Below are positions 12,310 to 15,494 of a stretch of 64,000 nucleotides of DNA, piece after piece. Every line of letters begins with the position of its first letter. Within the stretch, counting starts at the first letter, position 1. Source of the stretch: an uncultured Gammaproteobacteria bacterium (GTDB taxonomy: Bacteria; Pseudomonadota; Gammaproteobacteria; GCA-002705445; GCA-002716945); contig CACEHM010000002.1 of the NCBI GenBank assembly GCA_902559355.1, positions 1 through 64,000 of the forward strand. Reading direction: 5' to 3'. The notes under the pieces are model-generated. The model had not been told where the DNA came from and searched no databases. It saw nothing but the letters and a program-made list of their open reading frames with translations. The position numbers were made by a program, and so were the translations under genes.

Positions 12310-13275
12310 ATGATAGTTGATTATATTAAATTTAAAAAACTACCTTTATCATCGGAGATAGTATTGTTTTTCATACATGGCAATCCAAGGAACATCAGTA
12401 ATGAATTAGAGCATGATATTTTAAACTTTTATAAGAAACTTGACTACAAGCAGCAGAGTTATGTAATAGATGACGACTCTCAAACAGATGTTATAAATAA
12501 TAGCTATTTTGAACAGTCATTATTCGATGATAAAAAAATAATAACATTGAATATCGTATCAAATTCAATACCAAAAAATCTCAAGGTATTTATTGAAACT
12601 GTTATTACCAATAAAAATCAAAATAGAATTATTATTAAATTAGATAGGCAATCATCATCATTTAAAAATACAAAGTTTTATAAACATGTCGGCTCAAATT
12701 CGTGTTTGATTGAGATATATGAATTAAAGGGTAAGCTTCTTGAGCAGTGGGTTATTAATAAATGCAAAATAAATAAGATAAGTTACGATGATCAATTTAT
12801 AAGCAATTTAATTGAATTAAATTTCAATAATAGTCTGTCGATATCACAAACTATTTATCAAAAAAGCCTGATGGGTGTTATTGATGAGAGAGACACTGTA
12901 GAAAATTCTAAGTATGGAGAGTATGATTTAGTTGATACTTTATTAAATAAAGATTACCTTAGGTTTCTAAAAATCAGTAATTATCTTCAAAGCATAAATA
13001 CTCCGCTGACATATATTATTTTTTTGCTAAATTCTGAATTAGAAAAATTATACTTGATTCAACAATCAAAAAATAATAAACCATTTATCCCTCAATTCTT
13101 GCAAACAAAATATAGCGCAGCATCTACTAGGTATGGTCCTGACACCTTGCTGAATGCACTTAAAAATATCGTAAAATTAGATATAAATAGTAAATATAAT
13201 TCAAAAAATTCCAACTCATGGACAAGTTTTAATGATTTATTCTCAATTATAATGAATAATAATACGCAAGCATGA
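12310..13275 (+). CDS. holA: DNA polymerase III delta subunit
   Basis: This clamp-loader subunit opens the beta clamp at the replication fork. The 321-aa protein shows a divergent AAA+ fold: an N-terminal segment IVLFFIHGNPRNISNELEHD in place of a good P-loop, as in HolA, then IYELKGKLLEQWVINKCK and a helical C-terminal collar domain. It is slightly shorter than E. coli HolA (343 aa). Sequence similarity is weak, as usual for AT-rich members, and the call is supported by the location just before proA-nadD-rsfS, since holA and nadD are normally neighbours. It overlaps proA by 4 bp. Confidence 0.82.
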   Translation: MIVDYIKFKKLPLSSEIVLFFIHGNPRNISNELEHDILNFYKKLDYKQQSYVIDDDSQTDVINNSYFEQSLFDDKKIITLNIVSNSIPKNLKVFIETVITNKNQNRIIIKLDRQSSSFKNTKFYKHVGSNSCLIEIYELKGKLLEQWVINKCKINKISYDDQFISNLIELNFNNSLSISQTIYQKSLMGVIDERDTVENSKYGEYDLVDTLLNKDYLRFLKISNYLQSINTPLTYIIFLLNSELEKLYLIQQSKNNKPFIPQFLQTKYSAASTRYGPDTLLNALKNIVKLDINSKYNSKNSNSWTSFNDLFSIIMNNNTQA

Positions 13276-14537
13276 ATAAAGCTGACATAAAAAAATATAT
13301 AAAAGGTATTTGTGAGGCATCTCAGCGCGCAGCCATGGCAGCTAGATCACTTTCTAATATTCAACGTGTAATGATTATTAAAAAAGTTATTAATAATTTA
13401 AAAACTAATAATCAAACAATTATTAAGAAAAATTCAATCGATATTAAACTAGCAAAGCAAAATAACCTTTCAGATGCACTTATAGATAGACTTGTTATAA
13501 ACAGCAGTAGAGTTAAATCTATGATAAATGGACTCGAAGAAATAAATACAATACCAGATACACTCTATAAAAAAATCAATAAATCAAGACAATCTAGCGG
13601 AATAACTGTTGAGCAAATGAGAGTGCCTCTGGGAGTTATTGCTATGATTTACGAATCACGACCAAATGTCACGATTGATGCTGCAGGTTTATCTCTAAAA
13701 TCTGGCAATAGTATTATTCTAAGAGGAGGCAGTGAAGCTATAAATAGTAATTTGATATTAGCTAGTCTTATCAAAAAAGCTCTTCTTGAGAGCAAGGCAT
13801 CAACTGATATGGTTCAAATTGTTAAGACGATAGATAGGGTTGCTGTTAGTGAGCTTTTGAAAATGGACTCCTATATTGATGTTATAATACCTCGTGGAGG
13901 GAAAGGCTTAATTAAAAAAGTGGCAGAAGAATCTAAGATTCCAGTAATTAAGCATCTTGATGGCAATTGTCATGTATACATTGATAAAGATGCTGATTTT
14001 AAAACAGCAATGTCATGCACAATAAACTCTAAGACTCAAAGGTATGGTGTGTGTAATGCAGCAGAATCATTGTTAATTCATAAGAGTTTTCCAAAATCTT
14101 ATATCAAAGAAATTCTCTATACATTAGAAGAACATGAGGTTGAAATTAGAGGATGCAGTCAAACAAAGAAATTACATTCTAAGATTAAAAGCGCAAAGGA
14201 GTCTGATTGGTATGAAGAATATTTGAAACCAATAATATCTGTGAAAATTGTTTCGAGTATTGATGATGCGATATCACACATTGAAAAGTATGGAAGTAAA
14301 CATACTGAGGCTATAATAACAAAAAACAAAAATACTCAAGACAAGTTTCTTAGAGAGGTTGATTCTAGTTCTGTGATGGTAAATACTTCAACTCGATTTG
14401 CAGATGGATATGAATATGGATTAGGTGCTGAAATTGGAATTAGCACAGATAAAATACATGCTCGCGGACCAGTTGGACTAGAGGGATTAACAAATCTCAA
14501 GTATATTGTTAATAGCAAAGGAGTCATAAGAAATTAA
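13272..14537 (+). CDS. proA: Gamma-glutamyl phosphate reductase
   Basis: This enzyme reduces gamma-glutamyl phosphate to glutamate semialdehyde with NADPH, the second step of proline synthesis. The 421-aa length is typical. The catalytic Cys is in KTQRYGVCNAAES and the C-terminal signature VNTSTRFADGYEYGLGAEIG is present. It overlaps holA by 4 bp, and its stop codon overlaps the presumed ATT start of nadD. No proB is visible in the window. Confidence 0.96.
   Translation: MNKADIKKYIKGICEASQRAAMAARSLSNIQRVMIIKKVINNLKTNNQTIIKKNSIDIKLAKQNNLSDALIDRLVINSSRVKSMINGLEEINTIPDTLYKKINKSRQSSGITVEQMRVPLGVIAMIYESRPNVTIDAAGLSLKSGNSIILRGGSEAINSNLILASLIKKALLESKASTDMVQIVKTIDRVAVSELLKMDSYIDVIIPRGGKGLIKKVAEESKIPVIKHLDGNCHVYIDKDADFKTAMSCTINSKTQRYGVCNAAESLLIHKSFPKSYIKEILYTLEEHEVEIRGCSQTKKLHSKIKSAKESDWYEEYLKPIISVKIVSSIDDAISHIEKYGSKHTEAIITKNKNTQDKFLREVDSSSVMVNTSTRFADGYEYGLGAEIGISTDKIHARGPVGLEGLTNLKYIVNSKGVIRN
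14519..14535 (+). promoter_or_regulatory. Ribosome site and ATT start codon of nadD
   Basis: AGGAG at 14519-14523 (within AAAGGAG) sits 9 nt upstream of ATT at 14533-14535. In that frame a TAA stop lies at 14527-14529, and no ATG, GTG or TTG occurs before the essential motif GLYLGSFDPVHNAH. ATT is therefore the best start; ATC (14545) and ATA (14548) are the only other near-cognate options and are too far from the ribosome site. Confidence 0.7.
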
Positions 14538-15162
14538 ACAGCCTATCATAGGTTTATACTTAGGATCATTCGATCCTGTGCATAATGCTCATATAGACAT
14601 ACCATTGAAAATTAAGAGTCATTTCAAACTAGATAAAATTATCTATGTTCCGACAGGAACATCACCTGTAGGTAAAGCTTTTAAAGCTAATAAATCTGAT
14701 AGACTTAAAATGTTAGAAAATGTAATAGCCCAAGATAAGTCCCTAAGTATTGATGACTATGAATTGAAATCATCAGATATTTCATATTCCTTTAATACAT
14801 TGAAATACTTCAAAGAATTATATTCGCCAAACAAATTACGACTTATTATTGGTGAAGATAATTTTATGTCATTTACTAAGTGGTATAAATATAATGAAAT
14901 TATGAAGATAGTGAATATTGTAGTGTTGGTTAGGGATAATATTTTAAGATGTGATAACATGGGAGAGATAAAAATTTTACTTGAAGAGAATATTAATTTA
15001 TTTAATAAAGCTAAATGTGGGAAGATATATTTTTCTGAAAAACATAAATCAATTATCTCTTCGACAATGATCAGGGAACATGTCAGTAGGAATGAATCTA
15101 TTATGAATTACGTTTCTAATGAAAATAATAAATATATACTTGATAAAGGTTTGTATAAATGA
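14533..15162 (+). CDS. nadD: Nicotinate-nucleotide adenylyltransferase
   Basis: This enzyme adenylates nicotinate mononucleotide to deamido-NAD. The nucleotidyltransferase motif GLYLGSFDPVHNAH is encoded from 14551 on, so the first GTG (14578) cannot be the start because it would delete it. The second family motif appears as ISSTMIREHVS near the C-terminus. From the ATT at 14533 the protein has 209 residues, a normal length. The ATT overlaps the proA stop (ATTAA), and rsfS overlaps its end by 4 bp. AUU initiation in bacteria is known mainly for infC and pcnB, where it limits expression. Confidence 0.9.
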   Translation: MKQPIIGLYLGSFDPVHNAHIDIPLKIKSHFKLDKIIYVPTGTSPVGKAFKANKSDRLKMLENVIAQDKSLSIDDYELKSSDISYSFNTLKYFKELYSPNKLRLIIGEDNFMSFTKWYKYNEIMKIVNIVVLVRDNILRCDNMGEIKILLEENINLFNKAKCGKIYFSEKHKSIISSTMIREHVSRNESIMNYVSNENNKYILDKGLYK

Positions 15163-15494
15163 TGTTAAATGATGAGATAAATTCAATTTTAGAGGAACTT
15201 AAAGCTGAGGATATTATATCTTTAAATGTAAAAAATAAATCATCTGTGACTGATACTATGATTATAGCATCAGGAAGATCTACAAGGCATGTTAAGTCAA
15301 TATCAGATAATATAATAAAGAAACTAAAAAAAACAAAGGTTAAGCCTATAGGCATAGAAGGGTACTCAAAGTCAGAATGGATACTTATTGATTTTGGTGA
15401 CGTACTAGTTCATGTCATGCATCCTGAAACAAGAGAATTTTATTCTCTTGAAAAGCTATGGGACGAAAGCTTAAATAATGAAAATATGATTTAA
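15159..15494 (+). CDS. rsfS: Ribosomal silencing factor RsfS
   Basis: This small factor binds uL14 and blocks subunit joining in stationary phase or starvation. The 111-aa protein has the DUF143 pattern: VTDTMIIASGRSTRHVKSISDNI, then GIEGYSKSEWILIDFGDVLVHVM and HPETREFYSLEKLW (each quoted piece is a conserved block). The nadD-rsfS order is standard. rlmH, the usual next gene, is missing here; an AsmA/YhdP-like gene follows after 2 bp. Confidence 0.94.
   Translation: MMLNDEINSILEELKAEDIISLNVKNKSSVTDTMIIASGRSTRHVKSISDNIIKKLKKTKVKPIGIEGYSKSEWILIDFGDVLVHVMHPETREFYSLEKLWDESLNNENMI

What the first reader, a model, noticed from the sequence alone, without database searches (positions are those of the whole stretch)
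14519..14580. nadD appears to start at ATT
The frame has a stop at 14527-14529 and no ATG, GTG or TTG before the essential GLYLGSFDPVHNAH motif. AGGAG lies 9 nt before an ATT that overlaps the proA stop. AUU starts in bacteria are known mainly for infC and pcnB and respond to IF3. This would place NAD synthesis under start-codon discrimination.
Basis: partly seen in the sequence, partly recalled or inferred. Interest (0 to 1): 0.55.

Follow-up and report, generated by a model that had tools for sequence, protein, structure and literature searches.

The report
NAD-synthesis gene starting at AUU codon
In a group of small-genome bacteria the essential NAD-making gene nadD seems to begin with the very rare start signal AUU, overlapping the end of the gene before it, and relatives keep this; whether it serves to regulate NAD synthesis has not been tested.

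Summary
The nadD frame opens after a TAA at 14527-14529 and has only GAA-ATT-AAA-CAG-CCT-ATC-ATA before GLYLGSFDPVH. The ATT (14533-14535) shares one base with the proA stop TAA (14535-14537) and follows AGGAG (14519-14523) by 9 nt. It is not a sequencing error: of 21 motif-bearing nadD loci from the order (25 genomes searched), 14 have no ATG before the motif, and all 14 have an in-frame ATT at the same place (two of them also have a TTG 15 or 17 codons upstream). The other 7 have an ATG; 5 of them lost the ATT, 2 keep both. In a class-wide sample 90 of 92 motif-bearing loci have ATG/GTG/TTG within 20 codons; the two exceptions are one distant genus, which also has a Shine-Dalgarno core and ATT. 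infC in this order appears to start at AUA (22 of 23) or AUU (1 of 23). Best reading: a conserved AUU start, overlapping and probably coupled to proA. IF3-dependent control of NadD is plausible by analogy (infC, Streptomyces sigR) but untested. Against: ProA's terminal Asn codon plus the stop creates ATT automatically, and only 2-3 phylogenetically independent contrasts exist.

The parts
12310..13275 (+). holA (DNA polymerase III delta); its TGA stop 13273-13275 overlaps the proA ATG 13272-13274 (ATGA)
   Evidence: TIGR01128, 93.6 bits vs 80; sequence
13272..14537 (+). proA, glutamate-5-semialdehyde dehydrogenase, ending AGA AAT TAA
   Evidence: PRK00197.1, 547.9 bits
14519..14523 (+). AGGAG, Shine-Dalgarno core 9 nt before the ATT; present at this place in 7 of 7 genus members with nadD
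   Evidence: a 5-base core precedes only 3 of 59 other window starts
14527..14529 (+). in-frame TAA that closes the nadD frame upstream
14533..14535 (+). ATT, the proposed nadD start codon; its last T is the first base of the proA stop
   Evidence: in frame, open to the motif and present in 14 of 14 order members that lack an ATG start
14535..14537 (+). proA stop TAA
14533..15162 (+). nadD, nicotinate-nucleotide adenylyltransferase; motif GLYLGSFDPVHNAH from 14551
   Evidence: TIGR00482 over cut-off; dN 0.018, dS 0.070 against the nearest relative
15159..15494 (+). rsfS (ribosome silencing factor); its ATG 15159-15161 overlaps the nadD TGA 15160-15162 (ATGA)
   Evidence: TIGR00090, 129.2 bits vs 56.9; sequence

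Best explanation
nadD starts at AUU 14533-14535, giving fMet-KQPIIGLYLGSFDPVH, an N-terminus close in length to other NadD proteins. The codon shares one base with the proA stop (AUUAA), so ribosomes ending proA, helped by AGGAG inside the end of proA, initiate nadD there at low efficiency. The neighbouring junctions holA-proA and nadD-rsfS are ordinary ATGA overlaps. In nadD's frame (+1 relative to proA) a start codon sharing that base must end in T, so none of ATG/GTG/TTG could occupy the place; AUU is the only AUG-like codon that can (together with nothing else among AUN codons). Shown: the sequence, the conservation, and the absence of another shared start. Inferred: initiation at AUU, coupling to proA, low NadD output. 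Not shown: sensitivity to IF3. The confidence given is for AUU being the start; control by IF3 I put at about 0.3.
For: All 7 genus members with nadD (9 searched) keep AGGAG-N9-ATT-AA, with NadD identity 48-96% to the window's for the other 6. In the order, of 21 motif-bearing loci 14 lack an ATG within 20 codons before the motif, and 14 of 14 have ATT two bases before the proA stop, in frame and open to the motif, 6, 8 or 9 codons before it. 5 of 5 loci without ATT there have an ATG; 2 have both; none has neither (Fisher p 0.001, ignoring kinship). In L013 and L019 this ATT is the only ATN or NTG codon between the in-frame stop and the motif. L011 ends ProA with CAT (His) instead of AAT (Asn) and still keeps ATT, so the ATT outlives the amino acid. 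The 12 outgroup ProA proteins in the tree end in T, S, V, Q or E, never N. The ATT lies on both sides of the deepest split of the order. Codons between ATT and the motif vary synonymously (AAA/AAG, GAA/GAG). infC of the same order has AGGAG and ATA (22 of 23) or ATT (1 of 23) at its apparent start, so AUN initiation is plausible in these cells.
Against: No protein or ribosome data. ProA's C-terminal xAT codon plus any stop yields ATT automatically, and AAT is 78.7% of Asn codons in the window, so ATT conservation alone is weak; the absence of any other start carries the argument. Kinship leaves only 2 to 3 independent contrasts and the sign test cannot reach significance. L003 and L020 have an in-frame TTG 15 or 17 codons before the motif. 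7 of 21 order members have an ATG. The ATA directly before the motif is invariant in the genus. The 9-nt spacing is longer than at the three strong-SD ATG genes in the window (5-6 nt).
Confidence: 0.87

Rival explanations
1. AUU is the start and is a regulatory device: IF3 level sets NadD (and so NAD) output, as for infC and Streptomyces sigR. (An extension of the best explanation, not exclusive of it.)
For: IF3 represses non-canonical starts and controls sigR through its GTC start (PMC5472188, passages). infC in this order also appears to start at AUN. A distant genus (f17) has GGAGG plus ATT in nadD and, in the one genome displayed, ATT at infC.
Against: No expression data. 7 of 21 order members have an ATG, so any such control is dispensable. 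A frame-constrained overlap explains AUU without regulation.
Confidence: 0.3
2. The start is the ATA directly before the motif (14548-14550 here), giving fMet-GLYLGSFDPVH.
For: ATA is invariant in the 7 genus members; the nearest canonical codon is 1 codon before the motif in 2 of 92 class loci.
Against: In the ATG-less members outside the genus that codon is ATA, ATT, ATC, GTA or CTA; no Shine-Dalgarno core is correctly spaced to it.
Confidence: 0.06
3. NadD is made as a ProA-NadD fusion by a +1 ribosomal frameshift at AAT TAA.
For: nadD is in the +1 frame of proA with a stop at the junction; an SD-like AGGAG lies upstream.
Against: AGGAG is far from the stop for a prfB-type shift and AAT offers no good +1 re-pairing (both recalled, not tested); the sequence after the stop varies; other lineages have separate ATG starts.
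Confidence: 0.02
4. A sequencing or assembly error hides a normal start.
For: The genomes are in many contigs (18 for the window's own) and the two named order relatives are single-cell or metagenome records.
Against: The same ATT in 14 genomes, down to about 30% NadD identity.
Confidence: 0.01

Closest known systems
infC (IF3), AUU start in E. coli, ATC in Streptomyces (PMC5472188 passages)
   Same: essential gene, AUN start with a strong Shine-Dalgarno core
   Different: nadD is a metabolic gene; autoregulation does not apply; IF3 dependence untested; the start overlaps an upstream stop
Streptomyces sigR, GTC start repressed by IF3 (PMC5472188)
   Same: a non-infC gene with a conserved non-canonical start
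   Different: there shown by mutants and westerns; different codon, phylum and function
pcnB, AUU start in E. coli (recalled)
   Same: AUU start on a non-infC gene
   Different: no order member has a pcnB match over the family cut-off (0 of 25)
Stop-start overlapping gene pairs (ATGA, TGATG) with termination-reinitiation (PMC6728339 passages)
   Same: stop and start codons overlap at a co-directed junction
   Different: here ATTAA, the start's last base being the stop's first, a configuration that only a start ending in T can form

Membership tests
NadD (nicotinate-nucleotide adenylyltransferase) | profile match over the curated cut-off and intact nucleotidyltransferase motif | tested here: met
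   TIGR00482 146.2 vs 112.45 bits; GLYLGSFDPVHNAH
Genes with a non-canonical AUU start | no ATG/GTG/TTG that keeps the essential N-terminal motif | tested here: met
   for the window; in the order 12 of 21 loci have none within 20 codons and 14 of 21 have no ATG
Genes with a non-canonical AUU start | the AUU is conserved as the only shared candidate | tested here: met
   14 of 14 ATG-less loci
Genes with a non-canonical AUU start | initiation at AUU shown by N-terminal sequence or ribosome profiling | not testable with these tools
   no expression data held
IF3-controlled start codons (infC, sigR) | output changes with IF3 level or in IF3 fidelity mutants | not testable with these tools
   needs experiment
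Translationally coupled overlapping gene pairs | stop and start codons overlap in a co-directed pair | tested here: met
   ATTAA at 14533-14537; 16 of 21 order loci have ATT there
Translationally coupled overlapping gene pairs | downstream translation depends on upstream termination at the junction | not testable with these tools
   needs a reporter experiment

The most novel reading that the evidence does not exclude
An order-wide, ancient AUU start on an essential NAD-synthesis gene, used as an IF3-read gate: together with the AUN start of infC it ties NAD supply to the initiation-factor balance, and it arose at least twice (this order and genus g22 of family f17). It uses an AUUAA overlap that no canonical start can form.
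Probability: 0.2. Interest if true: 0.75.

Novelty: new variant of a known kind. Interest (0 to 1): 0.5.

Why it matters
Genuine AUU starts outside infC are very few, and gene finders that allow only ATG/GTG/TTG would truncate or miss this NadD. A conserved AUU on an essential metabolic gene, at a stop-start overlap whose frame excludes canonical starts, gives a natural system for asking whether weak starts are selected for low output, for IF3 control, or are tolerated because coupled ribosomes are less selective. Natural swaps exist: relatives that replaced ATT with ATG.

Tried and rejected
Sequencing error: rejected, the same ATT is in 14 genomes. Upstream canonical start inside proA: none within 20 codons and before an in-frame stop in 12 of 14 ATG-less loci; only L003 and L020 have a TTG, 15 and 17 codons up. 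Start at the ATA before the motif, and a ProA-NadD frameshift fusion: weighed and set low as rivals. ProA-only constraint on ATT: not fully excluded; weakened by L011 (His codon, ATT kept) and by outgroup C-termini. A first codon print and first alignment mixed strands and are void; replace them. A first tree input missed 6 proA ends and was replaced. pcnB as a further AUU gene: 0 of 25 order genomes over cut-off, so uninformative. Independent-contrast test: 2 to 3 pairs only, not significant. Literature: 'AUU start codon' with nadD gave 0 papers; 'nicotinate-nucleotide adenylyltransferase' with 'start codon' and 'ATT' gave 5, none on this by title and start of abstract; some searches gave the background papers. 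No paper was read whole: passages only for PMC5472188, PMC10158994, PMC1805508, PMC11445065, PMC2268962, PMC6728339. PMC10666635 was seen in search listings only. AG-461-I20' and 'Gammaproteobacteria bacterium isolate BS301-5m-G69'.

Full report
Observation. The frame of nadD opens after TAA 14527-14529 and reads GAA ATT AAA CAG CCT ATC ATA GGT..., so no ATG, GTG or TTG precedes GLYLGSFDPVHNAH. The product is NadD (TIGR00482 over cut-off) and its neighbours are holA, proA and rsfS. The ATT at 14533-14535 ends on the first base of the proA stop TAA 14535-14537, 9 nt after AGGAG 14519-14523. The junctions on either side are ATGA overlaps: holA-proA at 13272-13275 and nadD-rsfS at 15159-15162.

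Is it chance? In a class-wide sample outside the order, 97 nadD loci were examined, 92 gave the motif, and 90 of the 92 have ATG, GTG or TTG within 20 codons before it. Thirty loci came with the search and 60 more were fetched from its list; both sets are the best-scoring matches, so the sample leans to typical NadD. Seven more came from hand-picked genomes, one of which (G196) was already among the 60 and another (G040) was picked because its sister G189 had shown no canonical start. Of 78 named loci from the wider search (L027-L104) 74 gave the motif and 6 lack such a codon within 20 codons: three (L040, L060, L086; Opitutia or Opitutales records) with one at 22-28 codons, and three Betaproteobacteria/Burkholderiales records (L070, L077, L100) with CTG overlapping the proA stop as CTGA. 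In the window nadD is the one of 63 ORFs scored as coding without a plausible canonical start near its 5' end (my reading of the table), and a 5-base Shine-Dalgarno core precedes 3 of 59 other starts.

Relatives. Nine genomes of the genus (the window's own included) were searched, 7 have nadD, and 7 of 7 show AGGAG, nine bases, ATT. The order consists of one family with 25 held genomes; 22 have a match and 21 loci carry the motif; G023, split over two contigs (L022, L023), and the weak second match in G016 (L024) were dropped. Of the 21: 14 have no ATG within 20 codons before the motif and all 14 have ATT two bases before the proA stop, in frame and open. Two of these 14 (L003, L020) also have a TTG 15 or 17 codons upstream. 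Seven have ATG: five of them (L009, L010, L014, L015, L018) do not have the ATT, two (L016, L021) have both. No locus has neither (Fisher p 0.001 without correction for kinship). On a ProA+NadD tree the order is one clade (support 100), the ATT occurs on both sides of its first split, and the fewest changes are 2 for ATT and 3 for lack of ATG. Contrasts corrected for kinship number only 2-3 and are not significant.

Why ATT and not ATG. Against the upstream gene, nadD is in the +1 frame. A start codon whose last base is the first base of the proA stop must end in T, so ATG, GTG and TTG are excluded and ATT is the only AUN codon available. The other overlap type (NTGA) is used at the two neighbouring junctions here and at proA-nadD in several outgroups (ATGA, GTGA, TTGA, perhaps CTGA). 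ATT may therefore have been kept to preserve an overlapping, coupled junction and not for regulation. A caution: any ProA ending in an xAT codon makes ATT automatically. AAT is 78.7% of Asn codons in the window, and the two loci with both ATT and ATG show that ATT can sit there perhaps unused. But L011 ends with His CAT and keeps ATT, the 12 outgroup ProA proteins in the tree never end in Asn, and the five loci with no ATT all have an ATG.

Initiation machinery. infC was found in 23 of 25 order genomes; AGGAG and the codon nine before the NxRI motif are conserved, that codon being ATA in 22 and ATT in 1. An in-frame ATG exists further down, without that core. This fits the known use of AUN starts at infC (ATT in E. 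coli, ATC in Streptomyces; PMC5472188 passages). In E. coli, overproduced IF3 also lowers reinitiation at a coupled gene without a Shine-Dalgarno sequence (PMC2268962 passages). An IF3-sensitive, coupled nadD is thus plausible, not shown.

Second case. Genus g22 of family f17 has two held genomes and both lack a canonical nadD start; GGAGG plus ATT at the same aligned place lies inside the end of the upstream gene, which looks like cinA (name recalled from its residues, not searched). infC of one of them (L254) has ATT at the apparent start; the other (L255) was not caught by my pattern.

Verdict. AUU start of nadD: likely (0.87). Coupling to proA: likely but inferred. Control by IF3: possible (0.3). 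The kind (rare AUN starts) is known; the gene, the AUUAA overlap and the order-wide conservation were not found in print in the searches, which cover open-licence papers only.

Noticed in passing
L105-L127; own genome G000:C2:248540-249040 (outside the window): infC in this order appears to start at AUA (22 of 23) or AUU (1 of 23) after AGGAG.
   Followed up: partly
L153 (G189) and L223 (G040): nadD of a distant genus also lacks a canonical start and has GGAGG plus ATT inside the end of the upstream gene: a possible independent AUU start.
   Followed up: partly
L070, L077, L100: nadD of three Betaproteobacteria-type records without a near canonical start; CTG overlaps the proA stop as CTGA, a possible CUG start.
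   Followed up: no
window 1-64000: Shine-Dalgarno cores of 5 bases precede only 3 of 59 scored starts; initiation in this genome seems largely SD-independent, yet nadD and infC have AGGAG.
   Followed up: partly
L224 (G047): nadD match read through one TGA and two TAA: a broken or frameshifted copy.
   Followed up: no
G032, G151, G173, G284, G088: nadD matches in open frames of about 450-650 codons, possibly fusions or merely long open frames.
   Followed up: no
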